A stretch of 64,000 nt of DNA from Aquimarina sp. MMG016 (GTDB taxonomy: Bacteria > Bacteroidota > Bacteroidia > Flavobacteriales > Flavobacteriaceae): contig NZ_JAGJEA010000001.1 in assembly GCF_018100805.1 (NCBI RefSeq), positions 682,001 through 746,000 of the forward strand, read 5' to 3'. Positions within the stretch are counted from its first letter, which is position 1. Each line of letters opens with the position of its first letter. A model generated the notes under the pieces. That model had not been told where the DNA came from and ran no database searches. It saw only the letters and a program-made list of their open reading frames with translations. Of the stretch, positions 38,552 to 58,401 are shown piece after piece. Made by a program: the position numbers and the translations under genes.

Positions 38552-41500
38552 TTATTTGATAATTTGTTTGACAATAATATTATTTCGATTTTGAATCTGA
38601 ACAAAATATATTCCTCCTTCTAAAGCACCCATATTTACCTGTATCTGTTTTACATTATCATTAACAAATTGTGTAGACATCACTTTTCCTGAAATATCGA
38701 CTAGTCTAATCATCGAACCTTTAAGGTTTTGTTCGCTTTGTAGTGTTAAATCATCGATAACAGGGTTGGGAAATGCTCTTACACTTTTTGTGTTCTTACC
38801 AAAAGGTTGGCTTCTAACTAAATTTTGACAAGCAGGTGCTGTGGCACTATTACTAAAATATATAGTAAAACCACTATTGGATACTAATGCAAAATTATCG
38901 GTATCAACAGTAACCTCATATATCCCATCAAAATTTGGAATCCCAGTTCCAGAGAATGTAACCCCAGGCTGTGTCTCATTAAAAGTTTGACTTGTGATGC
39001 TTGACATCAAATTAATCCACCAACTTGGTGAACCATTATTTGTGTTCATCGATAACTGATACAATCCATTATTCTCTAAATCCCAATTTATGGTAAAATT
39101 GGTCATATTACTTAAATCAGGTCCTCCGTCACCTAACACATGTGCTTTTGTATAGCTTACATTTGCAAGTGTTTGTAAAGCTGAATTCTGTGGTGCTCCA
39201 AAACTACAATCACCGGTAGTGCCAGGTTCAGTTATAGTTACTGTGTTACTTACTGTATCAGTCGTTCCTACCTCATCAGCAATAGTTAATGTAATTATAT
39301 ATTCACCTGCTACACTAAACTCATGAGAAGTTGTCACTCCCGTACCTGTTGTCCCATTCCCAAAATCCCAGGAATACGACGAGATAACACCACCAGTACT
39401 TGTCGAAGTAGAAGCGTCAAAATTAATAATGACAGGAGCGATTCCTGTAGTAATATCGGATACGAAATTGGCTTCAGCGACAGGTGTATTAGGTTCATTT
39501 GCGGTAATAGTTACCACATCAGAAACATCTGTGCTTATACTATCACTTATAATTAAGGTTACCACATAAGATCCAGATTGTGAATATGTATGTGAAGGGT
39601 TTGCATCGTTGCTTGAGGTTCCGTCTCCAAAATCCCAAGTGTAACTAATTGTACTACCTACAGGAAATACTGATGATGACGAATCAAAATTAACAACCAG
39701 CGGAATTGTTCCGGAAATAGGAGTTGCTACAAAATTAGCCTCTATTGCGATTGCAGGATTAAGCACCTTGATGATTACTGAGGCTGTATCACTTTTACCC
39801 TTACCATCATCTACGGTTAATGTTATATTTTGGTCCCCAACATCTTTGAATTCATAAGATGTTGTCACACCTATTGCTGTATCGCCATTTCCAAAATCCC
39901 AGCTATATGATAATGTGTCACCATCCGGATCAGTTGAGCCAGAAGCATCAAAAGTAACCGCTAATGGTGCCATCCCTTGTGTGATGTTTGTAGAAATATT
40001 AGCTGTAGGTTTTCCATTAGTATCTGTTACAACACCTGTGGGTTCTAATCCCCACACTAACTCTCCATTGCGATATAAGGTTACTAAAACGTGTGGCGTC
40101 AAAGCTCTTTTACCACCATCATAAGAGAAATCATTACTTTGATCGTGAGCCTGGAATCCTGAATGATGTAATCTAGTTTGAATTTCACCTGTTTTTCCAT
40201 TTGCAGCCAAGCTTCCTGAAGAAGCTCCAAAACCAACTTCGAGATAGTGTTGTGTTCCTGTGGTGTTGAAAATTCCTGTAGTACCGGTTACAGCAGAATA
40301 ATCTACATTAAAATCCATAGGGACATCATTTTCTGGAGTGAACCAATATCTAATTGTAAAATCTGCTAGATTCACCGCTTCTAAGGCTTCACTAATGACC
40401 TGGAAAACAGGCTTTAGTTCCACTGCACCAGCAGATGTACTATTATCTCTATATGCTACACTAAATGGTGTATTTGGCAAATTATTAAATCGCTCATCTA
40501 CTGTAATAGCTATTTCTGTTGGATCACCGGTTAATGTGCCATCTGCCTCAGCTAAAGCTAGTTTTATTGTATGCCTTCCTTCTGCAAGATTAGCAATAGG
40601 AATAGGTTTTATTTCGAAAACCGATCCTTGCTCAACATCATCAATGAAATATTTTATATGCTGCCCTCCTGGTGAGATATCCCATTTGAAGGTAGAAAAT
40701 TCAATATCGAAACTAGTTCCTATTAGACTCCCATCTGTTGGGGATTGAATAATTGCAGTGGGGTCTTGCGGCAATTGATCCTTGGTAACAATTACTGTAA
40801 TAGTTTCTCCCAGATCAGTTAAAGAGTTATCACTACGCTCCATTTGTAAGGTTAGCTCATGCGGTCCTTCTGTTAAGGTAGTAGGATCCGTAAGTATTCC
40901 TCCACTTGTGACTAAACCTCTATCTTGTCCATCAATTCTGAACCTTAGCTTGTACTGCTGAGATGGTATCGACCATCCTTCTGTTTTAAATTTAATCTCC
41001 AATGGAGTATTTACTAATTCACCATCAAGAGGAGATTCAAAAAATACATCAGGCAAAGGACCGATTGGAGTATCTGCATCCCCACCATGGAGTGTCCATA
41101 ACACTGCTGCATCAAACATTTTCAGTCCCTCATCTGTCAACAAATGCATAAACTGGTCTCTTAATGGAAAAGCTACCCTTCTTGAAGGAATATTAAGACT
41201 AGCTTCATAACCAAATAAAATTGGTTTTGTTCCCGCTTTGGCAATTACTATCGCATCCGCTGTTGGATTACCAAAAGGCAGACTTTGTGAAATAGAGTAT
41301 AAAGATGTACTTGCTCCTGCACCTACAGCCATAGGATGTGTTGGATCAACAACATCGATTGTTGAAAACCCTTCACTGGTAAATCCATACCCTGTATTTA
41401 ATTCTCCGGTAGTTAACCTGAGTTTACCATACATAAATGGATTCCAAGTCATTAATGGCACTCTGGCAGCTTCCAGGTCATTTCCTAATTCTCTTGGATC

Positions 41501-44500
41501 TACTGTAGATGATACCAACACCAAATCAAACGGATTTGCTGATTGTGGACTAGTCGCTTCTTCATCAGAAAACAAGGTGATCTTAAACCCTAATTTTTGT
41601 TCTAAACGTGATTTGATTCTTTGATCTTCAGAAGTCAAATTATTCTTATCACCAACCACAAACATCACTTCAATGGTATTCTTATATTTAATATTGATCT
41701 CTGGTGTAACTGAAGCTGTATGTCCATTGTTATAAAAAACTTTTGCAGTAATCGTATATGTTTTCCAAATAATCGGAGTCCATGTGACTTCAAAAGGTGC
41801 TGTAGTTACTTCTTTCACTAATGTATTATCTACATAATATTCTACCTTGGTAACGCCCTCTATATTGGTCTCTATGCTCAACGTAATAGGATCAGCCTTA
41901 TCGATAACGGTTCCCTCTATTGGAGAAGCCATTTTTAGTGTTTGTTGTGTTGCCGGCGATACTGATGACCCATCTATTTGTTTAAGATATGCTTCTAACT
42001 GCTTTATCTGGGTAACACTTAATGAAGATGTTGCACCGTGAGCATCATTTGCATTGTACTTGGTAAATACTTCTGCCAGAGTTTTTGCTGCACCATGATG
42101 TAAATACGGTGCCGTAGCCCATACATCTTTTAAGGTAGGAACATCTAATGCCAATAATTTTTTGCCTAAACGATTCCCACTGTTTGATACAATAGTCCCT
42201 ACATCATGCATTTTACCAGCTGGACTATCAGTAAAAGCTTCACCACCATGACACGAATTACATTTTAAATCTTCGAATAACGATTTTCCTGCGACTCCAT
42301 CAGTAGTTAAAGTTCCGTTGGCATTACGATATGGACTAGGGTCAAATGTGCTAAGCGACTCTATATAGGCAGCTAGTGCATCTAGATCTGCGGACTTTCC
42401 TTTTTTAGCATCTCCAAGAGATAAGGCAGTAGTTCCTTCATTAAAGTCAGTATCACTTAAGAATCCTTGTCCATTAAAATGGAAACGAATATCATTTTCA
42501 AAATCCTGAATCTCATCAAAATTCGCGCTCCAATGTACTCTACCATGTGCTGTTCCCGCTCTACCAACCAAGGAAATTGTATTTCTTAACCCTTCCCCTC
42601 TATCTGTAAAATCCCAGGTACGACCATCCTGTGTACCATCACTATGACAACTTACACAACTAATGTACCCGTCGGTTCCCATTTTTAAATTTGAGGCATC
42701 GTAGAAAATTTGTTTTCCTTTTAATACAACAGGAGATAGTATTTCAGTTGTTACTGTATTTATAGTTGATACTTCTTGGAGTGTATTGCTTCCTGAATTG
42801 ATCATATCTGACGCATCAAAAACAGAAATACTACGATCCATAAAGTTTTTTACAAAAACACGATTTGTAGTTTGGTCTATTGCTAACCCTTGAGGAGCTC
42901 TACCCACATCTTTCTTTAGTAGTTCTAATCTTCGCTTGGGATCTATGACCACAATTCTGTTATTTCCCTGCATAGTCACAAAAAGGTAATTACCAGTTGG
43001 TGTATACAATGCCGAGGACGGTTGACCATGATTGTCTATATCTAATCTTTTGGCAAGTTCCTCCTGACTAGTCGTTAGATTAATAGGAGAAATAGCTGTA
43101 CGCACCACATTATCAAAGGTCAAAGGTTTACCATCTCTTGCTAATCCACGTAGCGTATTATCTTTTTTAGCTACTGACCAAGCCGATGTATTATCCGGAT
43201 GAATAGTTATACCTGCAACATAATTAGGTAATCCTCTGCCTTCATTTCCATTATCCACAGTAAAATCATCTATAACTAATGGAATTGTGTTTTTTAAGCT
43301 AAAGGTATTTAGATTTACTTCCCAAACCTCTCCTTCTGTATCTTCAGAAATAAACCTAGTAACTAATAACTTACTTCCATCTCCCGTAATTGCTAAGGCT
43401 CGCGGAGTAGATCCTATATACAAAGATCCTTTTATTGTGTTTGTTACTGGTGAAAGCTCTATGAGTTGTCCTGATCCAAAAGCAGATACAAATGCTCTAC
43501 TCCCATCCGGTGTAAAGACAATACCATATGGGCGTGATCCTTTTGATAATGCAATCTTTGTGACTAATGATCCATCTGTATTCAACACATACACCTCATC
43601 AGCATCACGACAGGTAATCCAGGCTTTTCCTTCACTGTCTAGCGCTACATTTACCGGATCTTTACCTACCGCAACTTCTTTAATAACTGTTAAGTTATCT
43701 GCATTTATAAGCGTTACGGTGTTATTATCAGGATTTACAGACCAAACAATTCTGTTTGTTGTATCTACGGTGATTGGCCCTGATTGTGTAGGTAATACTG
43801 AAGGCGTTCCAGACACAACAACAATAGATTGAGACCCTACTATAAACCCTCCGTTATTATCCGAAACCTGAACCTGAACGAGGTAATTACCAGCTTCTGT
43901 ATACGTATGAGATGTTGTTTTACCAACCCATTCGGTTTTTGGGGAACCATCTCCAAAATCCCATCGATATGTCAACGTATTTCCATCCGAATCAGTAGCA
44001 TTCGCTGTAAAATCTATTGCAGTATTTATAGTTACAGGAGAAGGAATACTTAAATCTATACTTGTAACTTCCGGAGCTTGGTTAGAGGTATCCCCACCTG
44101 TGGTAAAATAGAAGATATATTCTTCCATTCCATTACCTACAGCATCCTTTACTCCACCCTCAATAAATTTTACTTCATAAGTAGTATTTGGTAATAACGC
44201 TTCTCTTGGAGCATAATTGATGACTTGATATGACGTTGTGGTTACATCGCCTTTTATAGGTGTTCCTCCTAAAGGACTTACTTGTATGGTTTCATCATTT
44301 AAGGTAAGGTCATCTAGTGTTTCATTAATTACAAAACCTAATGTAGTTGTTTGTGGTTGATTTATAGCTCCGGCAATAGGAAAATGGTGCCCAACCGTTG
44401 GTGGATTGGTGTCTAATCCATCCTGATGAGCAAAAATAGACGTTTTATCATCTCCACTTGCTATAAGAATATGACCTATTGGCATCCATTGATTATCTAT

Positions 44501-45505
44501 GAACTGTAATGTTTCATCACTTGATGGAGGAAAGAATTCTTGTTCAATCTCCATTTTTTCAAAATTGAACTTTACTCCTCTATCAAATCTTCCTGAAAAT
44601 CCATATTCATCCTGAAAGATCATATATCGTCCTAAAGTAATTTGATCCGAATGTAAAGTGAATCCTCTTTTTACATTAGTAGGATCACTAATATCAAATC
44701 CTACTAAAGCATCCGGTCCTTGATTACCACTCATAAAGACAAGGTAGTTTCTCCATAACTGGATTCCAGTACTGTATTGTTCATGAGGAATATCTCCACC
44801 AAAAGATCCTAAAAACTTAATATTATTCGGGTCTCCAAAATCAAATACACTTATATCTCCTGTCTGTGGGGCATAAAAAACATAGTTTCCTACACGCACT
44901 ACCACATCTGGTAAAGAAACAGTAGCAGGAATATCATCTACCTGTACTCCTGTTCTCATATCAAAAACTCTACTCCCGTCAATAGTGTGAGGAAACGTTT
45001 CTAAATTATCATAATTAGATTGTCCATCTCTTACGGTGTACAAAATATCAGAAGAAGTGACTGGTTTCCTATCCAACATATTAGAGAGATCTAGATATTT
45101 ATATCCTGTCCCTTCTACTTCTGGTACAGAGTATTCTCTATAAAATAAATCTCCTTCCAGTTTCCACCATCTGTGACCATTATTTGCGGCATCACTAAAC
45201 TGTACTCTTTTTGGTGCAGTAGGATTAGAAACGTCCCAAACACCTGTTCCTGCCTGACCATTAATCATTAAATAGTTACGGTGGTAAGTGTTAATTCTAT
45301 CCCCTTCTGGAAAATTGGCCAGAAATGTTCCTGCGGGCCAGGTTTGTGTGGTCATTTTTGGGCCTGCTGTACCATCATACACTTGTGTAAATGATTTAAT
45401 AGCTAAACCTATTGTAATTAATATTACGACAAGACAAAGCTTTCGAATATTATTTTTCACAAAGGTAAAACCCCTATTCTTTTGATTGTATTCTTTTAAT
45501 TCCAT
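38552..45505 (-). CDS. CBM3-bearing di-heme cytochrome c peroxidase-like / beta-propeller multidomain protein, T9SS-exported
   Basis: A 2317-residue protein from ATG 45503-45505 (a TTG at 45556 would add 17 residues). A hydrophobic segment lies near residues 24-40. Domains in order are an LVIVD-like beta-propeller (about 45-380), a Big_5-like domain, a PKD (about 480-560), a YVTN beta-propeller (about 565-930), a di-heme domain with two CxxCH sites (Cys950/Cys953/His954 and Cys1082/Cys1085/His1086) and the CCP/MauG-type end VPTLKDVWATAPYLHHG, an Ig domain, a ThuA/amidotransferase-like domain, Ig domains, a CBM3 (IRYWFTPENDVPMDF), three PKD, the Cys-bounded unknown module and a T9SS domain. 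The CBM3 implies action on cellulose, and the hemes imply electron transfer, peroxidase or oxidase activity. It lies between mannanase and hydrolase genes. The function is not established. Confidence 0.88.
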   Translation of the reverse strand: MELKEYNQKNRGFTFVKNNIRKLCLVVILITIGLAIKSFTQVYDGTAGPKMTTQTWPAGTFLANFPEGDRINTYHRNYLMINGQAGTGVWDVSNPTAPKRVQFSDAANNGHRWWKLEGDLFYREYSVPEVEGTGYKYLDLSNMLDRKPVTSSDILYTVRDGQSNYDNLETFPHTIDGSRVFDMRTGVQVDDIPATVSLPDVVVRVGNYVFYAPQTGDISVFDFGDPNNIKFLGSFGGDIPHEQYSTGIQLWRNYLVFMSGNQGPDALVGFDISDPTNVKRGFTLHSDQITLGRYMIFQDEYGFSGRFDRGVKFNFEKMEIEQEFFPPSSDETLQFIDNQWMPIGHILIASGDDKTSIFAHQDGLDTNPPTVGHHFPIAGAINQPQTTTLGFVINETLDDLTLNDETIQVSPLGGTPIKGDVTTTSYQVINYAPREALLPNTTYEVKFIEGGVKDAVGNGMEEYIFYFTTGGDTSNQAPEVTSIDLSIPSPVTINTAIDFTANATDSDGNTLTYRWDFGDGSPKTEWVGKTTSHTYTEAGNYLVQVQVSDNNGGFIVGSQSIVVVSGTPSVLPTQSGPITVDTTNRIVWSVNPDNNTVTLINADNLTVIKEVAVGKDPVNVALDSEGKAWITCRDADEVYVLNTDGSLVTKIALSKGSRPYGIVFTPDGSRAFVSAFGSGQLIELSPVTNTIKGSLYIGSTPRALAITGDGSKLLVTRFISEDTEGEVWEVNLNTFSLKNTIPLVIDDFTVDNGNEGRGLPNYVAGITIHPDNTSAWSVAKKDNTLRGLARDGKPLTFDNVVRTAISPINLTTSQEELAKRLDIDNHGQPSSALYTPTGNYLFVTMQGNNRIVVIDPKRRLELLKKDVGRAPQGLAIDQTTNRVFVKNFMDRSISVFDASDMINSGSNTLQEVSTINTVTTEILSPVVLKGKQIFYDASNLKMGTDGYISCVSCHSDGTQDGRTWDFTDRGEGLRNTISLVGRAGTAHGRVHWSANFDEIQDFENDIRFHFNGQGFLSDTDFNEGTTALSLGDAKKGKSADLDALAAYIESLSTFDPSPYRNANGTLTTDGVAGKSLFEDLKCNSCHGGEAFTDSPAGKMHDVGTIVSNSGNRLGKKLLALDVPTLKDVWATAPYLHHGAAKTLAEVFTKYNANDAHGATSSLSVTQIKQLEAYLKQIDGSSVSPATQQTLKMASPIEGTVIDKADPITLSIETNIEGVTKVEYYVDNTLVKEVTTAPFEVTWTPIIWKTYTITAKVFYNNGHTASVTPEINIKYKNTIEVMFVVGDKNNLTSEDQRIKSRLEQKLGFKITLFSDEEATSPQSANPFDLVLVSSTVDPRELGNDLEAARVPLMTWNPFMYGKLRLTTGELNTGYGFTSEGFSTIDVVDPTHPMAVGAGASTSLYSISQSLPFGNPTADAIVIAKAGTKPILFGYEASLNIPSRRVAFPLRDQFMHLLTDEGLKMFDAAVLWTLHGGDADTPIGPLPDVFFESPLDGELVNTPLEIKFKTEGWSIPSQQYKLRFRIDGQDRGLVTSGGILTDPTTLTEGPHELTLQMERSDNSLTDLGETITVIVTKDQLPQDPTAIIQSPTDGSLIGTSFDIEFSTFKWDISPGGQHIKYFIDDVEQGSVFEIKPIPIANLAEGRHTIKLALAEADGTLTGDPTEIAITVDERFNNLPNTPFSVAYRDNSTSAGAVELKPVFQVISEALEAVNLADFTIRYWFTPENDVPMDFNVDYSAVTGTTGIFNTTGTQHYLEVGFGASSGSLAANGKTGEIQTRLHHSGFQAHDQSNDFSYDGGKRALTPHVLVTLYRNGELVWGLEPTGVVTDTNGKPTANISTNITQGMAPLAVTFDASGSTDPDGDTLSYSWDFGNGDTAIGVTTSYEFKDVGDQNITLTVDDGKGKSDTASVIIKVLNPAIAIEANFVATPISGTIPLVVNFDSSSSVFPVGSTISYTWDFGDGTSSNDANPSHTYSQSGSYVVTLIISDSISTDVSDVVTITANEPNTPVAEANFVSDITTGIAPVIINFDASTSTSTGGVISSYSWDFGNGTTGTGVTTSHEFSVAGEYIITLTIADEVGTTDTVSNTVTITEPGTTGDCSFGAPQNSALQTLANVSYTKAHVLGDGGPDLSNMTNFTINWDLENNGLYQLSMNTNNGSPSWWINLMSSITSQTFNETQPGVTFSGTGIPNFDGIYEVTVDTDNFALVSNSGFTIYFSNSATAPACQNLVRSQPFGKNTKSVRAFPNPVIDDLTLQSEQNLKGSMIRLVDISGKVMSTQFVNDNVKQIQVNMGALEGGIYFVQIQNRNNIIVKQIIK
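38829..39208 (-). repeat. Cys-bounded module, copy 1 (in the di-heme protein)
   Basis: It encodes about 127 residues from CSFGAPQN to APAC. Shared core: [31 protein letters not shown] and FTIYFSNS. See the related copies at 49879, 54568 and 55305. Confidence 0.8.
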
Positions 45506-45574: not shown

Positions 45575-45610
45575 GAAGGAAGCTATTTTGCAAAGCCTAT
45601 AGCTTCCTTC
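45575..45610 (-). terminator. Rho-independent terminator after the DUF5060 hydrolase gene
   Basis: 12-bp arms GAAGGAAGCTAT and ATAGCTTCCTTC have a 12-nt loop. On the minus strand a run of five T follows. It lies between the DUF5060 gene and the di-heme gene. Confidence 0.85.
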
Positions 45611-45635: not shown

Positions 45636-48600
45636 TTAATTCTTCATTATTTTCAATGTTCTTGATTTAGCTTTGTGATTAAGCTTAACAAAATATATTC
45701 CTGCAGGAAGATCATCCGTATCTAGCTCAACTTCCTTCACTCTTGATTGCACTTGGATAGTTTTTATTATAGTACCATTCATGTTAACTAAACTAACCCT
45801 AGCGCCATCCAGAAAATCGTTTCCTCTAATGACCAGTTTATCCTGAACAGGATTTCTATCGACTTTAATATTCATATCCTCTTTCAATACCTCTCTTTGC
45901 CTTGCTCCTTCTTTATAAGTAATCACCAGCTGAGGAGGTGTATTTGCTCCATTTTCTTTAGAAGCAAAAGCAAAATCATTTCCAGAAGTCATATTCATAA
46001 CCAATGATAACTTATTACCAGAAATTGAAGCTGTATTAAGGTTTACTATTTTATTACTTCCTAATTCATAAGTAGTATTTAAACTACCTAATAAAGCCCC
46101 TGTTGAAGGTTTATTAGCATTAGACAAGTTGTTTTCCGTCCAATTATTAGAAGTTCCTTTATTCACGTTAAGATTACCGTTACCAGGATCAGAGGCAACC
46201 TTAAATTTCAATTGTGCCTTGGTAATCGTTCCGTTAATTGAAGAAAGATCGAACATCAGATATGCTGTTCTTTTGTTTTGCTCTACCCTAACAATAGTAT
46301 TATTAAATCTGGTAGCCCCCTGAAGGTAAGCATCCTGAATTGGAGACAAAGTAACTGTTTGTTCTACAGCAACGATTTTAGAAGAAACCACTTTATCTAT
46401 ATTAAACAGATACCCCGTACCTCCTTTATACAATAGCTTCAATGTTTTGTTACCTTTAGAAAGTGATACATCTAAAGTATATTTCTTATAGCTATGCCAT
46501 TGTCCTGTAACGGGTATAGTAATTGAACCCACGATTTTTGAAGCTTCTATAACCTCTATTGTTCCTCCAACACCAGCACTGGAAGCATAAAAATCAAAAG
46601 TATATTCTCCATCCGAATCTACATTTACCTCATATTCGGTATAATCTCCGTTTTTGATATATCCTAAGTTTTTATTAGATGTTCCGGGAGTATTCTCGAT
46701 ACGTACACTTCCAGATTTTGAAATAAAACTCTCTGCTTCAAAATTACCTGGAATATCTATTACATCAGAAGGTGGTGTATCTTCTTTTATTTCAATATTT
46801 ATTCCTGAAGAAGTTGTTACTGCACCATCGTTATCTGTAGCTTTTGCCGTTATCGTATAATTCCCGGTATTAGCAATTGTGGTAGTTGTATTATAAGGAG
46901 CAATATTTTCTGTAGCTACCAAATTTCCATTTACAAAAAACTCTACCTTGGCAATAGTACCGTCAGTATCTGATGCATTAGCTATTAATGGTATTGTTGC
47001 TCCGGGTTGATATACCGCTCCATTTGCAGGAGAAGTCATGACCACTTGTGGCCCATTGTTTTCATCTCCACAATCTACTAATACTTCGGCAGGGCCATTT
47101 CCGGTAGGCTTAGTATATGCTTTTGACAATACAAATTTATCCATCTCGAATCCATCTTCTCTCATAGAAAATGAAATCGTATGTATCCCAGCCGTTGGAA
47201 CATTAATGAAGATTTTTTGTGCTTCGCCACAATGATTCGCTGCCGTACGTTGTTTACTCTCCCAGGTCCACTGATTTTTACCAGCACACCATTGCATTCT
47301 TTGACCTGATTCAGGCCAAGTTCCATCTATTCCAACATGAACTCCGTTATCTTCAGATCCTGTAGAATGTGCTCGTACCCAAACAAAATATTTACCCGGA
47401 GTAGTGAATTTTACTTTATAATCTATAATTGCCAACTGACCAGGAGTATTACTAAAGTTTTCTCCATTAATTAATGGGTCGCCATGAGTAACTCTTGTAT
47501 CTGGTAATATTTCTAGATAACCTCCACTACTAGCTCCATTGTGATGACTTGGATCTGGGTCAGGTGTTGGTGTAGCAGAACTACCATCTAAAACATACCA
47601 TTTTCTTTTATTGGTTTTAGATTGACTTTTAAAATGTTCTGCTTCAACAGCTACAACTCCATTTTGTTCTAAAGCGGCGCATTGATCCGGATCCGGATCT
47701 CCTCCTCCAGAGCCTTTTTTTATGATTAATGCCACCCAATCATTATTGTCAGGTGCAACTAGACTTCCTCCCAATGTAGTTTTAGTAGTTAAATTGCCTC
47801 CACTACGAGGATTATACCACTGTACATCATATTTGTTATTTCCATTAGGCAAATTAAGTCCTGTAGAACCACCATTAGGTCTATACACTGCATATATCTC
47901 GCCTGCCTTAGCTAAAACATAATCATTGTTATCCGAAGTAACTCCATCAGAAGATACCATACTTGTCAAATTCCCAAGTAAATTGTTGTTAAAAAATTGC
48001 AATGCTCTAGATGCATCAGAATATTTATTATTTCTGGACCTATGATTTTGTGCAGACAAATCGGTTTCTCCGGTTTGGTAGCCATAATAATATTCTACTC
48101 CTGTTCCACCTGCCATAAGTGTCCCCCAAAGCACCTTATGTCTAACCAGTTTATCTTCCTTTCCATCTTGATCGACTCCAATATTGGCACTTCCTTGTTC
48201 GTCATTGGCAACCACCCATTTTTTACCTGCGTTACGAGATTTTTCTAACCATCGTTTCACATCATTGTGTACTTTATTTTTATCCGTTTGCACAGATGCT
48301 CCGGTAAGAACTGAGTTATTTCCTAAAAGAGGGTTGTATCTCTGATCTTGTTGATTCGGATAGGTATGGATTACGATATGATGATCATAAGGGTCTATTT
48401 GCTTAATATAACTAGCAGTAGACTTTACTACATTATCCGGAATGGTTGTTTCTTCAGAAAGGTTCCAATTTAGAGCTAAGTGATGCCCAAAACGAGCAAT
48501 TAATTCCCGGTAATACAATTTTCTTTGACGACCAAAACCATTATTATCCATGATATTATCATTTTCGGTCTCTAAGGTCTTGAAATGCATAAACATTCCT

Positions 48601-49532
48601 TTCTTATCAGCATACTCGAATATCTTTTCCCATTGAGCAAGTTTGGATACATCAAATCTATCTTTGTGCACTCCTTGATTCCACTGCTGCCCATCATTGT
48701 ATCCGTTGTATGTGTTTACTCCTACTTTTAACAGGTGTGGAAATACATTTTCATCATCTCCATGTAGACTTAATGTTAAAAACGAAAAAGCATTCAACCC
48801 TTTATTAGACAAGTATCTTACAACTCCAAGTAATTCAGTCCCTTTTCCACCATTCCAGGTATAGGCGCTTGCATCAGAAGCTAAGTAATCCTGCTGATGA
48901 GGATTCCAGGACTTACGTCTATTCCCTCTATTAGGAGTAGCATCAAAATCATCATATGCCAATGTGTTTTCTGGTGCATCAGCTCCCGCTTTTACAAACC
49001 ATGGACCATTAGGACTTGTTGGGTTCGTACCAGCGAATCTTAGATAATGCTCACCTACATACTTTAGCATACCCTTAGCTTTAGCTCTGTAGTCTCTTCC
49101 GGACTTATCAGATTCTGCAATACTAAAAGTTCCGGTGCTTCCATCCATAAAACCTGCACCCGATCCACCTCCATTGATCGCGACATTGGATCCTGATGTA
49201 AAAGATGCTGACCAGTTCCAATTTCCTGTTTCGTCCGGGGCAAAATGTACTCTCCATTTATTCCCTGAGGTACAGCTATTATTTTCTGCATTACCGCACG
49301 CAGCATAATAACCAGGAACTTTATAGCTTCTGTTACTTCCTTGATGCGTAAAGGTGACTTCTAGTCTATAGTCTGAAAAAGGGTTGGGGTTCGCAGTTTC
49401 AGAAGTATTCGGACCGTTAAAAGTAAGGCTGACCTTATGCCACCTCTTTAATTCTCCCTCGGGAGTCTGGGCTTTTGCCAGAACTCCTAAAAGAAGAAAT
49501 GCAATTAAAAATTTGAATTTTGTTAGATTCAT
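45636..49532 (-). CDS. DUF5060-type clan-A-like glycoside hydrolase with CBM6 and DNRLRE-like domain, T9SS-exported
   Basis: A 1298-residue protein with signal peptide to about residue 21. Residues about 22-130 form a DUF5060-like sandwich (KWRVHFAPDETGNWNW). A TIM-barrel region of about 150-560 follows, with LNWNLSEE (Glu360/Glu361) and VVANDEQG (Glu445) placed like acid/base and nucleophile of clan A hydrolases; this is a guess from position. A collagen-binding-like end follows. Next are a large carbohydrate-binding-like sandwich (VVAVEAEHFKSQS), an Ig domain, a CBM6 (GNFEAESFISKSG, YTEYEVNVDSDG), a DNRLRE/CBM96-like domain (DAYLQGATRFNN) and T9SS. The substrate is unknown; CBM6 binds xylan, beta-glucan or agar-type chains in other proteins. 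It has its own terminator and lies next to a possible operator (49545-49581). Confidence 0.8.
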   Translation of the reverse strand: MNLTKFKFLIAFLLLGVLAKAQTPEGELKRWHKVSLTFNGPNTSETANPNPFSDYRLEVTFTHQGSNRSYKVPGYYAACGNAENNSCTSGNKWRVHFAPDETGNWNWSASFTSGSNVAINGGGSGAGFMDGSTGTFSIAESDKSGRDYRAKAKGMLKYVGEHYLRFAGTNPTSPNGPWFVKAGADAPENTLAYDDFDATPNRGNRRKSWNPHQQDYLASDASAYTWNGGKGTELLGVVRYLSNKGLNAFSFLTLSLHGDDENVFPHLLKVGVNTYNGYNDGQQWNQGVHKDRFDVSKLAQWEKIFEYADKKGMFMHFKTLETENDNIMDNNGFGRQRKLYYRELIARFGHHLALNWNLSEETTIPDNVVKSTASYIKQIDPYDHHIVIHTYPNQQDQRYNPLLGNNSVLTGASVQTDKNKVHNDVKRWLEKSRNAGKKWVVANDEQGSANIGVDQDGKEDKLVRHKVLWGTLMAGGTGVEYYYGYQTGETDLSAQNHRSRNNKYSDASRALQFFNNNLLGNLTSMVSSDGVTSDNNDYVLAKAGEIYAVYRPNGGSTGLNLPNGNNKYDVQWYNPRSGGNLTTKTTLGGSLVAPDNNDWVALIIKKGSGGGDPDPDQCAALEQNGVVAVEAEHFKSQSKTNKRKWYVLDGSSATPTPDPDPSHHNGASSGGYLEILPDTRVTHGDPLINGENFSNTPGQLAIIDYKVKFTTPGKYFVWVRAHSTGSEDNGVHVGIDGTWPESGQRMQWCAGKNQWTWESKQRTAANHCGEAQKIFINVPTAGIHTISFSMREDGFEMDKFVLSKAYTKPTGNGPAEVLVDCGDENNGPQVVMTSPANGAVYQPGATIPLIANASDTDGTIAKVEFFVNGNLVATENIAPYNTTTTIANTGNYTITAKATDNDGAVTTSSGINIEIKEDTPPSDVIDIPGNFEAESFISKSGSVRIENTPGTSNKNLGYIKNGDYTEYEVNVDSDGEYTFDFYASSAGVGGTIEVIEASKIVGSITIPVTGQWHSYKKYTLDVSLSKGNKTLKLLYKGGTGYLFNIDKVVSSKIVAVEQTVTLSPIQDAYLQGATRFNNTIVRVEQNKRTAYLMFDLSSINGTITKAQLKFKVASDPGNGNLNVNKGTSNNWTENNLSNANKPSTGALLGSLNTTYELGSNKIVNLNTASISGNKLSLVMNMTSGNDFAFASKENGANTPPQLVITYKEGARQREVLKEDMNIKVDRNPVQDKLVIRGNDFLDGARVSLVNMNGTIIKTIQVQSRVKEVELDTDDLPAGIYFVKLNHKAKSRTLKIMKN

Positions 49533-49602: not shown

Positions 49603-52002
49603 TTATTTCTTAATGATTTGTTTCGTTAAAGTTTCTCTTTTATGGTATACTTTGATAAAATACAATCCTGGTCTAAGATCCGCTATATCTAATGAAGTCC
49701 CATCTGCATTAGATTTTACGGTTGTAGTCTTTAGTATCTTTCCTGTAATATCTACTAAATTCAGGATAGCTCCATCCATAGTAGTTTTACTTTTTACATA
49801 AACAATATCCGATACTGGATTTGGAAATGCTTCAATCCTAAAAGCATCTGAAACTTTTGGTGCTTTATTTAAAGTATTACAAACTGGAGGAATATCACTA
49901 TTACTGAAATAGATAGTAAATGTTCCTGTTTTAGATACTAGTACAAAATTATTACCATCTAGGGTAGCGTTATACGCTCCATCAAGATTGGGGAATCCCG
50001 TTCCGGATAGGGTTATACTTGGTTGTGCAGCATTAAAATTCTGAGCAGTGATGTTATTCAATAAATTATTCCACCAATCTGGAGAGCCATTATTTGTATT
50101 CATTGAAAACTGCCATAGCCCATTATTTGTAAGATCCCAATTAATTGTAAAATTGGTTACATTGCTTAAGTTAGGACCTCCAGACCTTAAAACATAGATT
50201 TTTGTATAAGCAACATTTGCGACTGTTGGTAATGGATCAACCTGAGGAGCCCCAAAACTACAATCTCCACCATTTCCAGGTTCTGTAATCACAATGGAAG
50301 AAGTTGCTTTATCAGTATTCCCCGATGAATTAGTCACTGTTAATGTCACAATATAATTGCCTGAGGTGATATATTCATGAGATATTGTAGCACCATTTCC
50401 TATAGTACCATCTCCAAAATCCCAAGCATATGCCAGCGAACTACCATCAGAACTTGAAGAGCCTGAACCATCAAAAGAAATAGTAGCTGGCGCTACTCCT
50501 CCAGAAGCACTAGTAATAATATCTGCTGTTACTATTACAGAAGTATCGGGGTTGCTAACTACAATTGTCGTTGTTTCAGTATCATTTAAAGATCCATCAC
50601 TTACTGTAAGCGTAATTGTATAACTTCCGGGCTGAGTAAAAATATGTGATATTCCTACTCCTGTAGCGGTAGTACCATCTCCAAAATTCCAAGAATATGA
50701 AAGTGTGTCATTATCCGGATCAGAAGAAGTGGAAGCATCAAACTGAACTGTTAATGGAGCATCGCCAGAAGCTATATCATTACTAAATCTGGCAACAGGT
50801 GGTCGATTAACTGTGCCACCCACAACATTAGGGATTAGCGGCGCCAAATGAGGTGTTAAGACGTCTAATTTCCATTGATTTACAGAAGTCCAATCATCTT
50901 GTAAAATTCCTCCGGTATCACCAGAATTAGGATTCATACTCCAAAAGGTCCAGGAATAAATACCACCCATAAAATTAGTAAACTCAGTAAACCAGGTATA
51001 GGCGATACCACCAAAGGCATCTTGATTTTTGATCCCAAATTCTCCTACGAATAAAGGAGAAGTTCCTTCTTCATATAAATAGTGAAAGTTCTCTTGCCAT
51101 ATCCCAGGCATATTTTGAGGAAAATTAGGAGCTTCGAACCAATCTTGTGGGGCTACTTCCGGACCGTATTCATGAGCAGAATACATTAATTTACCGGGGT
51201 CAGATAATTGTACAGGATACTTCTTTGCACCCATCAACTGTCCGCCCCACCAATATGAATTTCCTTCAAATTCACCTACACCTTCTACGATTATCAACAC
51301 ATTAGGGTTAGTTTGTAATATAGCATTACCACAACGCTCTGCAGCTTTGTTCCAATCTGTAGCGGGATTACTATTCCCCCAGGAAGATCCGTGAGGTTCA
51401 TTGTTCAGGTCCATAGCTACAACAGCTGAGTAGTTCTTATAACGATCAGCTATAAAAACCCAATCATCAATCCACCGTTGTTCTGAATACTCGGGAGTAT
51501 ACCAAACAGCTTCGTTTAAAAAACCATCTGCAGCCCTAGAATGATTATCTAAGACAATTTTCATATCATTCTCCTGACACCATCTTACAAAAATATCCAT
51601 AAGTTCAATGGGCTTAGTCACTGTGGCTTCCTCTTCGTTCATTGGAGATATGCCTGTATAACCATCAGACCCATAGGAAGGGATGGTTATCGTAGCTCCT
51701 GGATTTAACATTTCGTTACACCAAGGTACTCTTATGGTATTAAATCCGAGATCCTTGATTTGTTGTAGTACACTTTTCATATCACGGGTCCATATTCCGT
51801 GAGGAAAGTAGTTTTGTGTTTCAAAACCAAACCAGTTTACCCCGGTAAGTCTCACTTCTTTTCCAGTAGAATCAAATAATTTATTCCCGGAAACTGAAAG
51901 CCAGTTTTGTTCCTGAGCTGATCCTTTGCAAAACATACCAAATACTAATAGTATGGTCAAAGCAGTACAAATACACTTTATACTTTTTATTGTATTTTTC
52001 AT
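49603..52002 (-). CDS. GH5 endoglucanase with PKD domains and Cys-bounded module, T9SS-exported
   Basis: A 799-residue protein with signal peptide to about residue 30. The GH5 domain (about 32-392) opens with LTGVNWFGFETQN and GFNTIRVPW and has MDLNNEPHG (acid/base Glu202) and PLFVGEFG (nucleophile Glu321). This matches bacterial cellulases of the GH5_1/GH5_2 kind, which cut internal beta-1,4-glucan bonds. Two PKD domains (about 400-578), the Cys-bounded unknown module (about 581-708) and a T9SS domain (about 725-799) follow. No CBM3 is present, so the unknown module may provide substrate binding. It sits behind the GH9-GH48 gene, separated by a strong terminator. Confidence 0.94.
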   Translation of the reverse strand: MKNTIKSIKCICTALTILLVFGMFCKGSAQEQNWLSVSGNKLFDSTGKEVRLTGVNWFGFETQNYFPHGIWTRDMKSVLQQIKDLGFNTIRVPWCNEMLNPGATITIPSYGSDGYTGISPMNEEEATVTKPIELMDIFVRWCQENDMKIVLDNHSRAADGFLNEAVWYTPEYSEQRWIDDWVFIADRYKNYSAVVAMDLNNEPHGSSWGNSNPATDWNKAAERCGNAILQTNPNVLIIVEGVGEFEGNSYWWGGQLMGAKKYPVQLSDPGKLMYSAHEYGPEVAPQDWFEAPNFPQNMPGIWQENFHYLYEEGTSPLFVGEFGIKNQDAFGGIAYTWFTEFTNFMGGIYSWTFWSMNPNSGDTGGILQDDWTSVNQWKLDVLTPHLAPLIPNVVGGTVNRPPVARFSNDIASGDAPLTVQFDASTSSDPDNDTLSYSWNFGDGTTATGVGISHIFTQPGSYTITLTVSDGSLNDTETTTIVVSNPDTSVIVTADIITSASGGVAPATISFDGSGSSSSDGSSLAYAWDFGDGTIGNGATISHEYITSGNYIVTLTVTNSSGNTDKATSSIVITEPGNGGDCSFGAPQVDPLPTVANVAYTKIYVLRSGGPNLSNVTNFTINWDLTNNGLWQFSMNTNNGSPDWWNNLLNNITAQNFNAAQPSITLSGTGFPNLDGAYNATLDGNNFVLVSKTGTFTIYFSNSDIPPVCNTLNKAPKVSDAFRIEAFPNPVSDIVYVKSKTTMDGAILNLVDITGKILKTTTVKSNADGTSLDIADLRPGLYFIKVYHKRETLTKQIIKK
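49879..50262 (-). repeat. Cys-bounded module, copy 2 (in the GH5 endoglucanase)
   Basis: It encodes about 128 residues from CSFGAPQV to PPVC. Core: [31 protein letters not shown] and GTFTIYFSNS. Confidence 0.8.
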
Positions 52003-52068: not shown

Positions 52069-55000
52069 CTACCTATTAATCATCACTTTATTTCTGAATT
52101 TTTCTTTTGAAGCGAAATCAAAAGTTTCTAAAATATATAATCCAGAAGGTAATTCTTCTACAGAAATACGAGCCTGTATCTGATTTGTATTCTTTATGTT
52201 TTTAACTTTAACTACATTACCAGATAAGTCAATCAATCGTATCCTAAGGTTAGTATTACCATTACTATTCTTTTTACTACTATTGGCGGACACATTAATA
52301 TAATTCGCTGCCGGATTAGGACTCACTAACACATTTGCTTGTTGTGTTACCGGCGCAGGTGCATTAGTGGTCTCCCCAAAGAAGAAACCATATTCTGCAT
52401 TTGCCAGTGCGACTTCTATCTGAGCCCAACTTCTGTGATAATTTTGTGTAAAATCTGTACCAGAATCATATGCTGTTTTTAATCTGGCATAGTCCGGATC
52501 ATTTTTTAGTCCTGATCTTATATCTAAGAATGATACTCCGGGCTGGATAACATCTCCATTAGCCATAGTACCAGTAAATCCTTGTGGTACATATACTTCT
52601 TCTTCAAAAATTCTTTTGAAATCACCTCTGGACTCAGGAGAGGAGACTCCTTTATCATCACGATAGGTAATCCACATCCTGTCCAATACTTCTTTAGCTA
52701 GATCGCGAGATACCGTATCCAAGGTTGCGTATTTTTCTGTAGCAGCAGCATAGTAAATTAATGCTTTAGCCATCGACGCAGCTACTCCTAAATCCTTTCC
52801 ATAATCAGTAACAACTACGCTCAGGTTATTATTACTCCCCGGATTTACCGGATCCCAAGTATCAGGCTCTCCTGTCCACTCTAGCGTTGCAGGGATATCA
52901 AAATCATTATCTCCAATAAGTTTTACTTCACTTTTTACCCAAGTAGTCCATTTATCCATGAGGCTTTTGGCCATTGGGTCATTAGTAATGTAATAGTACT
53001 CAGCTACTCGCTCCATAGACCAGGCTTGCCATCCAAACCAAGTTCCACTTCCCGGATCATGGTATACAGGATCTGTATCAAAAGCCATATCATAGAATGT
53101 TGATTTACCAGCAGGATACACGCTATAATCTCCATTCCAGCTATTGGTAGCTCCACCGGCTATTGCTCCTTCTTTAGATTGTAACCAGGTATAGAATTCC
53201 ATTTGTCTTTTCAGGCTCTCGTTCCAGTCTCTTTCTCCATTCTGAGATTTTGGCTTCAACTCATTTACCTGTGTTAATGCATATGCGGCAACGGGGTTTT
53301 GGTATCCAAAATGACAATGACTGGAACTAATTCTAAATGCCCATTGAGAGGCTGGATCCGCAGACCCGCCCCAAGACATATACCACGACATCAAATAGTG
53401 CGCACTATCATATCCGGTTCCTGCTCCACTAGTCGCACTCTGTACTCCTAAAGGTTTAAAATATTTATCAAACATCGCTAACCTTAAATAATCTCCCATC
53501 TTAGATGCTTTATCCAAATCAAGACTACTTAAACTAGTTCCTTGTTCTTTCGCATATACTTGTGCCCAATACATAGCTTGTACTGCTCTAGCATCTGCAT
53601 CAGGAGCACTAGTGTATCTCCATTGTCTGGCATAATTTTGATCTTCAATAAATAACGGTAAGAATCCATTTGCTCCTCCCCAATCGAAGCTCTCCCAGGA
53701 TGGATGAGGTATGGTTTCATACACTGATTCTTGCTCTCCTCTCTGGAAGGTGTTAATGTAAGAAGGAGTACTTACTCCATCACCTCGGTTTCCATAACCA
53801 TAGAAATTATCATTATCCAATAACCAGTGCATTTGATATATATCAGCACCATAGGTAGCTGTCAGATCTGATGAAACTGGATCTGAACCTACGGGAGCAC
53901 TGAAATTAAGTGGCGCCGGATAATCGCTCGGTAAAGGGAATTCACTAGCATATGCAGCCGGAGAAGATGGATTATACGCTCCGTTAGTTGGCTGATCCGC
54001 AGTAGTCGGAATAATAAATTGTTCGATTTTATCCCATACATTACCTAGTGGAGTCCAATCTCCTGTTACCCTACCATTCATTACTTCTAGCCATAACCAA
54101 TAGGAGTATAATTCGCTGGTAGATTCATGGCCATGATCTGGCGCCTCTACAATTAATGATTCGATCGAATGGTGAGGAGAACCGTCTGCACTAAAATATC
54201 CATTTGCAGGGTCATAAAACTCATTTCTCATTTCGATAAAACGATCGATATATGCATTATCACCAGTAGGTGGATTAATGATAATCTCATCCGTTGCTTT
54301 AATCGTTATTATGGCTTGATCTTCTCCTCCATTTCCATCAGCAACAACAAGAGTAACTTCATAATCTCCTTTGGTAGTAAATGTATTTTCTGCAGTAACT
54401 CCAGTGGCAGTATTTCCATCTCCAAAATCCCAATTATAGGTCAACGTATCACCATCAGCATCTGTAGAACCCGAAGCATCAAATGTAACAACCAATGGAG
54501 CCACTCCTGTTACCGGGGTTGCAGAAATATCAGCAATAGGATTGGTATTGCCACCCGTGTCTCCACCACAATCAGGTGCAGTAGCCGTAGTACTAAAATA
54601 AATAGTAAATCCTCCTGTTTTAGATACTAATGCAAAATTGCCTGCATCTTCTGTCACCCAGTATTCACCATCTAACCCTGTAAATCCGGAGCCTGTAATA
54701 GTAATTTCCGGTTGCGAAGCATTAAAGTTCTGTGTAACTTTTGGCAGGAAATCATTATACCAATCCGGAGTACCATTATTGGTATTCATAGAAAATTGAT
54801 ATAATCCATTATTGGCTAGATCCCAGTTAATATTAAATTTAGTTACATTGTCTAAGTTTGGCCCTCCATTTCCTAAAACATAAATAAAATTATATTCCTT
54901 ATTTATACTCGAGAGAGAAGTAGCTATAGGAGTTCCAAAAGAACAATTTCCACCTACGACAACAGGGTTTCTCACTACTTCTATACTATTAGAAAGATCA

Positions 55001-58000: not shown

Positions 58001-58401
58001 AGCTCCTGAGGTCCGGTATGACATTTTAGGAAGTAATCCGTTACAAATCGAAGATTCCTCTTTAGAATATTTAATTGCCCTGCTCTTGCATAGGCATCCT
58101 TAAATTCGATTCCTCCCCAAGCCAATGTAGTCACTGAATAAGCCATTGGAAAATTAAACTTTACGTGGTCTCCGGCATCATACCACCCCCCTGTTAGGTC
58201 TAATCCGACATCGGATCCATCATCTAATGCTGAATCAGCTCTCCAGGAAACCCTATTCCAAGAAGGCAACTTTCCCGATTGTTGTGCTTCATAAAAAAGT
58301 AATGATTTTTGGAGTGCTTCTCCATAATTGAATTGTGCAGTTGCTGTGCTACAAATCAGATATGACAGTAATATCATAGCTGATTGAATAATTTTTTTCA
58401 T
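52069..58401 (-). CDS. Bifunctional GH9-CBM3-GH48 cellulase, T9SS-exported
   Basis: A 2110-residue protein with signal peptide to about residue 22. The N-terminal GH9 domain (about 24-470) has [15 protein letters not shown] (Asp75, Asp78) and [10 protein letters not shown] (Glu449). A CBM3, probably of the c type that extends GH9 clefts, covers about 485-635. Three PKD domains (about 645-900), a Cys-bounded module, an about 100-residue spacer of a type common in adhesins ([17 protein letters not shown], then [14 protein letters not shown]-like), a second Cys-bounded module and a fourth PKD follow. Residues about 1381-2025 form a GH48 domain, with [13 protein letters not shown] containing likely acid Glu1426. 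A T9SS domain ends the chain. GH9 endo- and GH48 reducing-end processive cellobiohydrolase activities are known by family. The plan resembles CelA of Caldicellulosiruptor but with other linkers. Confidence 0.95.
54568..54945 (-). repeat. Cys-bounded module, copy 4 (second in GH9-GH48)
   Basis: It encodes about 126 residues from CSFGTPIA to APDC. Core: [33 protein letters not shown] and [12 protein letters not shown]. It is very like copy 3, which suggests duplication within this gene. Confidence 0.85.
55305..55683 (-). repeat. Cys-bounded module, copy 3 (first in GH9-GH48)
   Basis: It encodes about 126 residues from CAFGTPID to APDC. Core: [33 protein letters not shown] and [12 protein letters not shown]. 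Confidence 0.85.

What the first reader, a model, noticed from the sequence alone, without database searches (positions are those of the whole stretch)
38552..45505. Cellulose-targeted di-heme redox / beta-propeller megaprotein inside a cellulase island
Seen: one chain with two beta-propellers, two CxxCH heme sites 132 residues apart with a CCP/MauG-type end motif (APYLHHG), a ThuA/amidotransferase-like domain, a CBM3, PKD domains and a T9SS signal, placed between mannanase and hydrolase genes. Known: di-heme peroxidase-family proteins oxidise small molecules or polymers, as RoxA does rubber; CBM3 binds crystalline cellulose. Inference: a surface redox enzyme that acts on cellulose-associated material, or supplies electrons or peroxide chemistry for oxidative attack, in a locus with no recognisable LPMO. 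I know of no described system with this order of domains.
Basis: partly seen in the sequence, partly recalled or inferred. Interest (0 to 1): 0.85.

Follow-up and report, generated by a model that had tools for sequence, protein, structure and literature searches.

The report
Cellulose-docked di-heme enzyme in cellulase cluster
A marine bacterium makes a giant secreted protein that carries two heme sites and two cellulose-gripping modules, and in its relatives this protein nearly always comes together with a particular cellulose-cutting enzyme, so it may be an untested heme-based helper in cellulose breakdown.

Summary
The gene is real (2,317 aa, minus strand, genus Aquimarina). Confirmed: YVTN propeller, two CxxCH sites 132 residues apart, CBM3, four PKD domains, T9SS tail; a first propeller is likely. 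Not confirmed: ThuA. Missed: a C-terminal CBM113, a second cellulose binder; and the propeller/di-heme core resembles the fused hydrazine-synthase beta-gamma proteins reported outside anammox bacteria. That core is spread over many phyla without CBM3; the CBM3-bearing form is essentially one Bacteroidota clade. GH48 exocellulase genes are in 34 of 35 checked genomes with the CBM3-type gene, against 1 of 36 with CBM3-lacking relatives; in 21 of 22 Aquimarina genomes the gene lies beside GH9-GH48 genes. AA10 LPMO genes are absent here and from 11 of 34 genomes checked, so it is not simply an LPMO partner. Both heme sites, a candidate inter-heme Trp and a candidate second His ligand are invariant in 53 of 53 relatives. 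Best reading: a secreted, cellulose-anchored di-heme enzyme of the peroxidase/oxidase class serving GH48 cellulase systems. Heme binding, substrate and activity are untested. New variant of a known kind.

The parts
38552..45505 (-). whole gene, 2,317 aa
   Evidence: homologues with 73-88% core identity in 21 other Aquimarina genomes
45386..45505 (-). residues 1-40, N-terminal hydrophobic stretch, likely Sec signal
   Evidence: read from the sequence; inference
44420..45385 (-). residues 41-362, likely beta-propeller (LVIVD type by its relatives); the most conserved of the segments compared
   Evidence: 92-96% identical in 17 of 21 Aquimarina relatives, 77-79% in 4; dN/dS 0.02-0.03, lowest of 12 segments; LVIVD in 10 of 32 distant relatives
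44099..44413 (-). residues 365-469, Big_5
   Evidence: E 5.8e-13
43850..44044 (-). residues 488-552, PKD
42761..43813 (-). residues 565-915, YVTN beta-propeller, hydrazine-synthase-beta-like
   Evidence: Z 37.6 over 302 residues to 5c2v_B
41972..42763 (-). residues 915-1178, di-heme domain
   Evidence: hydrazine synthase gamma 5c2v_C E 3.7e-20, di-heme peroxidases next
42644..42658 (-). CVSCH, residues 950-954, heme I site
   Evidence: 53 of 53 rows
42530..42532 (-). W992, candidate inter-heme Trp (38 residues after His954, the spacing of HZS gamma His106 to His144)
   Evidence: 53 of 53; equivalence inferred from spacing and PMC12758564
42248..42262 (-). CNSCH, residues 1082-1086, heme II site
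   Evidence: 53 of 53 rows
42098..42100 (-). H1136 of APYLHHG, candidate second axial ligand of heme II
   Evidence: (53 of 53), aligned with YFHDG of HZS gamma; ligand role inferred
41744..41938 (-). residues 1190-1254, Big_7
   Evidence: no Pfam family found, low model confidence; 50-89% identical among relatives of the main CBM3 clade
40490..41068 (-). residues 1480-1672, probably two Ig-like domains
   Evidence: beta-rich in the model; inference
40034..40459 (-). residues 1683-1824, CBM3 (3b type)
   Evidence: 3zqx E 1.4e-23; TM 0.92 to 4c8x
39230..40021 (-). residues 1829-2092, three PKD domains
38828..39208 (-). residues 2100-2226, CBM113
   Evidence: 9KVN E 3e-33; aromatic triad Y2149, W2162, W2163
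38555..38773 (-). residues 2245-2317, T9SS type A sorting tail
   Evidence: Por_Secre_tail 43 bits, cut-off 27; TIGR04183
34983..38381 (-). GH5-type mannanase with two CBM3 and three PKD
   Evidence: 8gf3 mannanase E 4.4e-47
45636..49532 (-). DUF5060 / CBM6 / CBM96 protein, putative glycoside hydrolase
   Evidence: hydrolase role inferred
49603..52002 (-). GH5 cellulase with PKD, CBM113-like domain and T9SS tail
52069..58401 (-). GH9-CBM3-PKD-CBM113-GH48 fused cellulase
58420..60603 (-). GH16 with ricin-B lectin domain

Best explanation
A T9SS-secreted redox enzyme of the di-heme peroxidase/MauG/hydrazine-synthase-gamma superfamily, held on crystalline cellulose by CBM3 and CBM113, and inherited as an accessory of GH48-based cellulase systems. 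Proposed working: heme I (His954) has an open distal face and activates H2O2 or O2; Trp992 passes electrons to heme II (His1086/His1136); the two propellers hold the electron donor or substrate. Acting beside the GH9-GH48 cellulase, it would oxidise or de-protect cellulose-associated material, or remove peroxide at the cellulose surface. Shown: domains, conserved motifs, cellulose-binding modules by sequence and fold, co-occurrence with GH48, independence of AA10. Inferred: heme binding, ligands, peroxide/oxygen chemistry, actual cellulose binding, substrate. The confidence given is for the class 'secreted cellulose-bound di-heme redox accessory of GH48 systems'; peroxide or oxygen chemistry on cellulose-associated material I put at about 0.35.
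For: Heme motifs, W992 and H1136 invariant in 53 of 53 relatives from many phyla. HZS-gamma is the best sequence match, in three collinear stretches (the first stretch, at heme I, is weak on its own); the propeller matches HZS-beta at Z 37.6. CBM3 fold TM 0.92 and CBM113 E 3e-33. The chain up to CBM3 is kept in Aquimarina, Tenacibaculum, Fulvivirga, Reichenbachiella, Flavivirga, Flammeovirga and a Cyclobacteriaceae genome. 21 of 22 Aquimarina genes lie beside GH9-GH48 genes. GH48 in 22 of 22 Aquimarina genomes with the gene and in 11 of 44 without; outside the genus in 11 of 12 CBM3-type genomes and 1 of 36 CBM3-lacking ones; in 397 family genomes 5 with the full gene, 5 with GH48, 4 shared, plus one GH48 genome with a remnant. 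In G351 gene and GH48 are about 210 kb apart on one contig. Purifying selection on the core segments. Two cytochrome c assembly genes in the genome. A clade of five Pseudomonadota relatives carries a galactose-oxidase-like fold, a peroxide-producing kind, in the N-terminal slot.
Against: No experiment; heme binding is not shown. The AlphaFold model is poor over the di-heme part, so the fold rests on sequence. Relatives outside the genus were fetched by two peptide patterns, one of which covers residues 1000-1007, so invariance there is partly by construction; the CxxCH sites, W992 and H1136 lie outside both patterns. On an rpoB tree the GH48 association gives 4 or 5 agreeing, 0 opposing and 2 or 3 uninformative independent pairs (median p 0.0625), suggestive only; linkage in one cluster explains part of it. 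G041 keeps GH48 but has only a remnant of the gene, and ten further GH48-bearing Aquimarina genomes lack it, so it is dispensable. One CBM3-type genome (L097) has no GH48. Many genomes are MAGs of untold completeness. In the nearest CBM3 the position of F1784 is Asn (2ylk, 4c8x) or Trp (3zqx); I recall, without having found the paper, that the Asn form binds cellulose poorly. Four relatives (L052, L092, L095, L097) lack the PKD triplet and CBM113 (L052 as L077). A hairpin lies upstream of the gene, so co-transcription is not certain.
Confidence: 0.6

Rival explanations
1. It is a peroxide-protection device: a cellulose-bound di-heme peroxidase that removes H2O2 (from the algal oxidative burst or other oxidases) and so protects the cellulases; it does not act on polymer.
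For: Characterised superfamily matches include cytochrome c peroxidases. A clade of Pseudomonadota relatives carries a galactose-oxidase-like fold, a peroxide source, in the same chain.
Against: A soluble peroxidase would not need two cellulose binders and a close tie to GH48; no electron donor outside the cell is identified.
Confidence: 0.3
2. It is an electron-transfer or H2O2-supply partner of AA10 LPMOs.
For: 20 of 22 Aquimarina genomes with the gene have AA10; CBM-tethered cytochromes have been proposed as LPMO partners (PMC10916295, PMC12542752).
Against: No AA10 in this genome or in G103; 9 of 12 CBM3-type genomes outside the genus lack AA10; the AA10 link within the genus is weaker than the GH48 link (Fisher p 0.002 against 2e-9; independent pairs median p 0.25 against 0.0625).
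Confidence: 0.07
3. MauG-like maturase: it oxidises residues of a secreted protein, for instance a neighbouring cellulase, rather than a polysaccharide.
For: Weak MauG and MbnH similarity; invariant inter-heme Trp candidate.
Against: Scores far below MauG and MbnH cut-offs (26.2 of 443.85; 45.7 of 362.85); a maturase need not bind cellulose.
Confidence: 0.1
4. Hitch-hiking: the gene only travels with the cellulase cluster and has no role in cellulose use.
For: Physical linkage in 21 of 22; presence changes 11 times on the rpoB tree, GH48 also 11; only a remnant is left in G041.
Against: Two cellulose-binding modules in the protein itself; co-occurrence where unlinked (G351) or on different contigs (G040); purifying selection.
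Confidence: 0.08

Closest known systems
Hydrazine synthase beta-gamma (5C2V) and its fused homologues outside anammox bacteria (PMC12758564)
   Same: propeller followed by di-heme domain in one chain; best di-heme sequence match; propeller Z 37.6; Trp at the gHis144 spacing, as reported for clades I-III of the homologues
   Different: no alpha-subunit match among the six neighbours scanned, no third cysteine in the di-heme domain, extra N-terminal propeller, CBMs, T9SS tail; not a hydrazine synthase
Di-heme cytochrome c peroxidase / MauG superfamily (Pfam CCP_MauG)
   Same: two CxxCH, APYxHxG-type motif, score over the Pfam cut-off
   Different: fused in a secreted 2,300-residue cellulose-binding chain
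RoxA/RoxB rubber oxygenases
   Same: RoxA-like_Cyt-c segment (E 4.5e-6) and polymer-directed by analogy
   Different: 26.5 bits against a cut-off of 26.7; RoxB and RoxC equivalogs 13.0 and 13.5 bits against 900
Cbp2D/Cbp2E of Cellvibrio japonicus; TERTU_3803 of Teredinibacter turnerae (PMC12542752, PMC10916295)
   Same: secreted proteins with cellulose-binding modules and, in Cbp2D and TERTU_3803, c-type heme domains; Cbp2D/E reported as important for growth on insoluble cellulose
   Different: X183/X132 heme domains, CBM2/CBM10, gammaproteobacteria; no di-heme core of this type is described for them in the parts I read
CelA of Caldicellulosiruptor bescii (for the neighbouring gene)
   Same: GH9-CBM3-GH48 in one chain (abstract in listing)
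   Different: the window gene has PKD and CBM113 modules and a T9SS tail

Membership tests
Di-heme peroxidase/MauG superfamily | two c-type heme sites and family profile | tested here: met
   CxxCH at 950 and 1082, invariant in 53 of 53; CCP_MauG 27.7 bits, cut-off 25.6
Di-heme peroxidase/MauG superfamily | Trp between the hemes | tested here: inconclusive
   W992 invariant, spacing as HZS gHis144; geometry not verified
Di-heme peroxidase/MauG superfamily | di-heme fold in a structure model | tested here: inconclusive
   model confidence low over model residues 921-958 and 1045-1100
Di-heme peroxidase/MauG superfamily | covalent heme, peroxidase or oxidase activity | not testable with these tools
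   needs protein
HZS beta-gamma-like fused proteins | YVTN propeller fused N-terminally to a di-heme domain | tested here: met
   di-heme part by sequence only
Hydrazine synthase (enzyme) | NCBIfam hydrazine synthase gamma / beta-gamma cut-offs | tested here: not met
   68.4 bits against 625; 66.2 against 1250
Hydrazine synthase (enzyme) | third heme cysteine (gCys165) | tested here: not met
   only cysteines 950, 953, 1082, 1085 in residues 915-1178
MauG / MbnH | NCBIfam equivalog cut-offs | tested here: not met
   26.2 of 443.85 and 45.7 of 362.85
RoxA/RoxB/RoxC | Pfam RoxA-like_Cyt-c cut-off and NCBIfam RoxB/RoxC | tested here: not met
   26.5 of 26.7, a near miss; 13.0 and 13.5 of 900
CBM3 | profile and fold | tested here: met
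   32.7 bits, cut-off 22.4; TM 0.92 to 4c8x, a CBM3b
CBM3 | aromatic/polar cellulose-binding strip | tested here: inconclusive
   D1735, Y1736, R1778 in 22 of 22 and F/Y at 1784 in 22 of 22; 1784 is Trp in 3zqx, 6d5b and 3zqw but Asn in 2ylk and 4c8x. Which positions form the strip is recalled
CBM113 | similarity to UKD and its Tyr50/Tyr63/Tyr64 cellulose site | tested here: met
   E 3e-33; Y2149, W2162, W2163 here, aromatic in 21, 21 and 20 of 22 rows (paper residues). Alginate residues Arg36, Lys100, Lys110 align with Thr, Val, Asn
T9SS type A cargo | C-terminal sorting domain | tested here: met
   43 bits, cut-off 27; 36.7, cut-off 23
ThuA-like | Pfam ThuA match | tested here: not met
   not among the 24 families matched by 28 homologues at E<=1
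LPMO-dependent partner | AA10 in the same genome | tested here: not met
   none in this genome
CAZy X158/X183/X132 redox proteins | X-domain similarity | not tested
   no profile at hand

The most novel reading that the evidence does not exclude
A copper-free, heme-based oxidative enzyme that acts directly on crystalline cellulose (or on material that shields it) and takes the place of LPMOs in GH48-bearing Bacteroidota; more widely, a cross-phylum family of secreted propeller/di-heme polymer oxidases with interchangeable binding modules and, in one Pseudomonadota clade, a built-in copper-radical-oxidase-like peroxide source.
Probability: 0.2. Interest if true: 0.92.

Novelty: new variant of a known kind. 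Interest (0 to 1): 0.68.

Why it matters
Oxidative cellulose attack is thought of mainly as copper (LPMO) chemistry. Here is a conserved, secreted di-heme protein with two cellulose-binding modules that follows the GH48 exocellulase, not the LPMO, through Bacteroidota. If it is active it would add a heme route or a peroxide-control layer to cellulose degradation. It also gives a physiological setting to hydrazine-synthase beta-gamma-like proteins found outside anammox bacteria, for which the parts of PMC12758564 that I read (sections 7-8) give no tested function.

Tried and rejected
ThuA/amidotransferase: ThuA not among the Pfam families matched by 28 homologues. LPMO partner: tested by AA10 distribution and set low. 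Hydrazine synthase, MauG, MbnH, RoxA as exact families: all under their curated cut-offs. Foldseek and VIA-align on residues 41-1178: rows filled by the YVTN propeller, so neither the first propeller nor the di-heme part was really tested by fold; no di-heme protein appears among the rows shown. The model of residues 1180-1826 is poor over the ThuA-like stretch. A sequence profile of residues 45-565 found no convincing solved propeller, only PKD-region matches and one row at E 0.21. A Bacteroidota-type promoter pattern gave no hit in the gaps between the six genes; sigma-70-like sites are no more than in shuffles. Paper searches aimed at the architecture listed no description of it. A GH9 survey outside the genus was not made.

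Dropped or uncertain rows: 19 loci that repeat genomes already taken were left out of the tree and alignments and one short core, L140; one search used 53 of the 60 references listed and one search used 28 of 34. L096 is cut by its contig end before CBM3 and is counted as CBM3-type by its place in the tree; L102 and L106 are cut too and are counted as CBM3-lacking although their 3' parts are unseen; neither genome has GH48. L105 has a CBM3 but lies outside the main clade and is counted as CBM3-type. L101 lies in the same genome as L092 and was not counted. L143, L146 and L147 were dropped because of the 50-locus limit and L090 was not held. The Aquimarina locus L072 matches none of the contigs that I counted and was not tested for GH48. 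Six Aquimarina genomes (G013, G021, G030, G046, G094, G097) were left out of the rpoB tree for low completeness; G024 and G039, also below 90%, were kept. The search for related loci kept 80 of 312 relatives, so counts outside the genus come from the best-scoring ones.
Full report
What is there. The gene at 38552-45505 (minus strand; a TTG start would add 17 residues) codes for 2,317 residues. In order: hydrophobic N-terminus; likely beta-propeller 41-362; Big_5; PKD; YVTN propeller 565-915; di-heme domain 915-1178 with CxxCH at 950 and 1082; Big_7; a conserved domain 1262-1478 that I could not assign; a beta-rich, probably Ig-like pair; CBM3; three PKD domains; CBM113; T9SS tail.

Cellulose binding. 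The CBM3 is closest to the CBM3b of C. thermocellum cellobiohydrolase 9A (3zqx E 1.4e-23; 4c8x TM 0.92). D1735, Y1736 and R1778 are kept in 22 of 22 Aquimarina proteins, and position 1784 is Phe in 16 and Tyr in 6. That position is Trp in 3zqx, 6d5b and 3zqw but Asn in 2ylk and 4c8x. I recall that the Asn form binds cellulose poorly and that Trp restores it; the one search made for this did not list such a paper by title. So an aromatic is in place, but binding by this CBM3 needs a test. The C-terminal domain matches the UKD domain of CelAly (9KVN, E 3e-33), which binds insoluble cellulose and alginate and founded CBM113 (PMC13235733, abstract and sections 18-19 read). Its cellulose residues Tyr50/Tyr63/Tyr64 correspond to Y2149/W2162/W2163; its alginate residues Arg36, Lys100, Lys110 align with Thr, Val, Asn, so cellulose is the likelier target.

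The redox core. By sequence the di-heme part is nearest to hydrazine synthase gamma (E 3.7e-20, three collinear stretches, of which the one at heme I is weak on its own) and then to di-heme cytochrome c peroxidases; the propeller before it matches hydrazine synthase beta (Z 37.6). Fused beta-gamma homologues outside anammox bacteria, Bacteroidota included, and a Trp at the gHis144 position in their clades I-III, are reported in PMC12758564 (sections 7 and 8 read). Here W992 stands 38 residues after the heme I histidine, the distance from gHis106 to gHis144. Both CxxCH, H991, W992, E998, D1001, E1003, D1005, R1007 and H1136 are invariant in 53 of 53 aligned relatives; one of the two peptide patterns that fetched the relatives outside the genus covers residues 1000-1007, so invariance there is partly built in, but not for the heme sites, W992 or H1136. 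It is not a hydrazine synthase, MauG, MbnH or RoxA by their curated cut-offs. The structure model is weak exactly over the di-heme part, so I claim the fold from sequence only. Two cytochrome c assembly genes are present in the genome.

Where it occurs. Within Aquimarina a close homologue (core 73-88% identical) is in 22 of 66 genomes, own included; three further genomes, and G010 as a second copy, hold a distant paralogue at 42-44%. The chain up to and including CBM3 also occurs in Tenacibaculum, Fulvivirga, Reichenbachiella, Flavivirga, Flammeovirga and a Cyclobacteriaceae genome; L052 (there L077), L092, L095 and L097 lack the PKD triplet and CBM113. In a tree of 86 cores the CBM3-bearing proteins form one supported group of 35 rows (SH-aLRT 99; one row, L096, is cut by its contig end), plus Pseudarcicella L105 nearby. 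Outside it the core is found in Acidobacteriota, Planctomycetota, Verrucomicrobiota, Myxococcota, Pseudomonadota and others; of 32 such proteins scanned 32 match RoxA-like_Cyt-c, 31 CCP_MauG, 24 Big_5, 10 LVIVD and 9 CBM6, and CBM3 is not among the 25 commonest families. The core is thus a widespread kind, and the cellulose-bound form is a Bacteroidota elaboration of it.

Tie to GH48. GH48 is in 33 of 66 Aquimarina genomes: in 22 of 22 with the gene and 11 of 44 without (Fisher p 2e-9). In 397 genomes of the family, 5 have the full gene and 5 have GH48, 4 of them shared; the fifth GH48 genome, G041, has a remnant of the gene between its GH48 and mannanase genes, and G123 has the gene without GH48. 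Among 48 genomes reached through loci, 11 of 12 CBM3-type genomes and 1 of 36 CBM3-lacking ones have GH48; many are MAGs whose completeness was not told. The family sample and the locus set share three genomes (G423, G176 and G123 appear as G500, G504 and G506, judged by identical coordinates or contig length); counted once, and with G351 added, GH48 is in 34 of 35 checked genomes with the CBM3-type gene. In 21 of 22 Aquimarina genomes the gene is within the same 20 kb as GH9-GH48 genes, G040 being the exception (own genome from the window); in G351 the two are about 210 kb apart on one contig. On an rpoB tree of 60 genomes presence needs 11 changes, and independent pairs go 4 or 5 with, 0 against, 2 or 3 without difference (median p 0.0625): suggestive, limited by number.

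Not an LPMO feeder. AA10 is absent from this genome (99.94% complete) and from G103, present in 20 of 22 Aquimarina genomes with the gene and in 23 of 44 without, and present in only 3 of 12 CBM3-type genomes elsewhere; 11 of 34 genomes with the gene checked for it therefore lack it.

Selection. dN/dS against two relatives is lowest in the first propeller (0.02-0.03), about 0.05 in the di-heme domain and highest in the sorting tail (0.29-0.35); dS is near or above 1 in most segments, so the ratios are rough. The first propeller is probably functionally central; what it binds is unknown. In one clade of five Pseudomonadota relatives the N-terminal slot holds a galactose/glyoxal-oxidase-like propeller (GO-like_E_set over its cut-off in L136, L137, L142, L146, Glyoxal_oxid_N under its cut-off or not listed; L143 by its sequence) with the Cys, Tyr, Tyr-His and His motifs that I recall as copper-radical-oxidase ligands. 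Two other Pseudomonadota relatives scanned, L112 and L135, do not have it, and 3 of the 32 proteins matched those families. Such enzymes make H2O2, which fits a peroxide-using di-heme site.

Mechanism and limits. I read it as a cellulose-anchored di-heme peroxidase or oxidase that assists GH48 systems. Shown: parts, conserved motifs, distribution. Inferred: heme ligands, chemistry, substrate. Similar ideas exist for CBM-tethered cytochromes: Cbp2D/Cbp2E are thought to do more than feed an LPMO (PMC12542752, passages read), and the T. turnerae X183 domains did not drive an LPMO under the conditions tried (PMC10916295, sections 2.1 and 3 read). Hydrazine synthase heme properties were taken from passages of PMC12607021. 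For Cytophaga and Sporocytophaga, PMC6247017 (passages) states that both lack known exoglucanases and LPMOs; a Sporocytophaga MAG has an 814-residue protein with the core and no CBM3 (L108) and no GH48.

Noticed in passing
52069-58401 (-): A single gene joins GH9, CBM3, PKD, CBM113-like modules and GH48, the layout of Caldicellulosiruptor CelA (abstract in search listing) but in a marine Bacteroidota with a T9SS tail.
   Followed up: partly
L136, L137, L142, L143, L146 (residues 1 to about 530 of the ORFs): One clade of Pseudomonadota relatives fuses a galactose/glyoxal-oxidase-like propeller, with apparent copper-radical-site motifs (recalled), to the same YVTN/di-heme core: a possible peroxide maker and user in one chain.
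   Followed up: partly
45575-45610 (-): A strong hairpin followed by a T run lies between the DUF5060 gene and this gene; by eye 17 of 22 close relatives, window included, have a hairpin of differing sequence upstream of the gene. The terminator scan did not list it. It may be a terminator, attenuator or processing site.
   Followed up: partly
L163:13816-14343 (G041): Remnant of the gene (residues 17-192 alignable at 77%) between GH48 and mannanase genes; most of the gene is gone.
   Followed up: partly
L112:1486-6420: A gammaproteobacterial relative carries CBM_5_12_2 and CBM6 with the same core, apparently an independent coupling to polysaccharide binding.
   Followed up: no
L063, L064, L065, L069: A second, distant paralogue of 1,646-1,771 residues in four Aquimarina genomes; no homologue of the window's cellulase genes shows in the 20 kb fetched around each, apart from shared domains of the paralogue itself.
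   Followed up: no
L082, L083, L090, L100: Tenacibaculum copies nest inside the Aquimarina copies in the core tree and sit in a similar cellulase cluster, suggesting horizontal transfer of the cluster.
   Followed up: no
28481-34798 (+): 2,105-residue T9SS protein with five MBG_2 stretches next to the cluster, role unknown.
   Followed up: no
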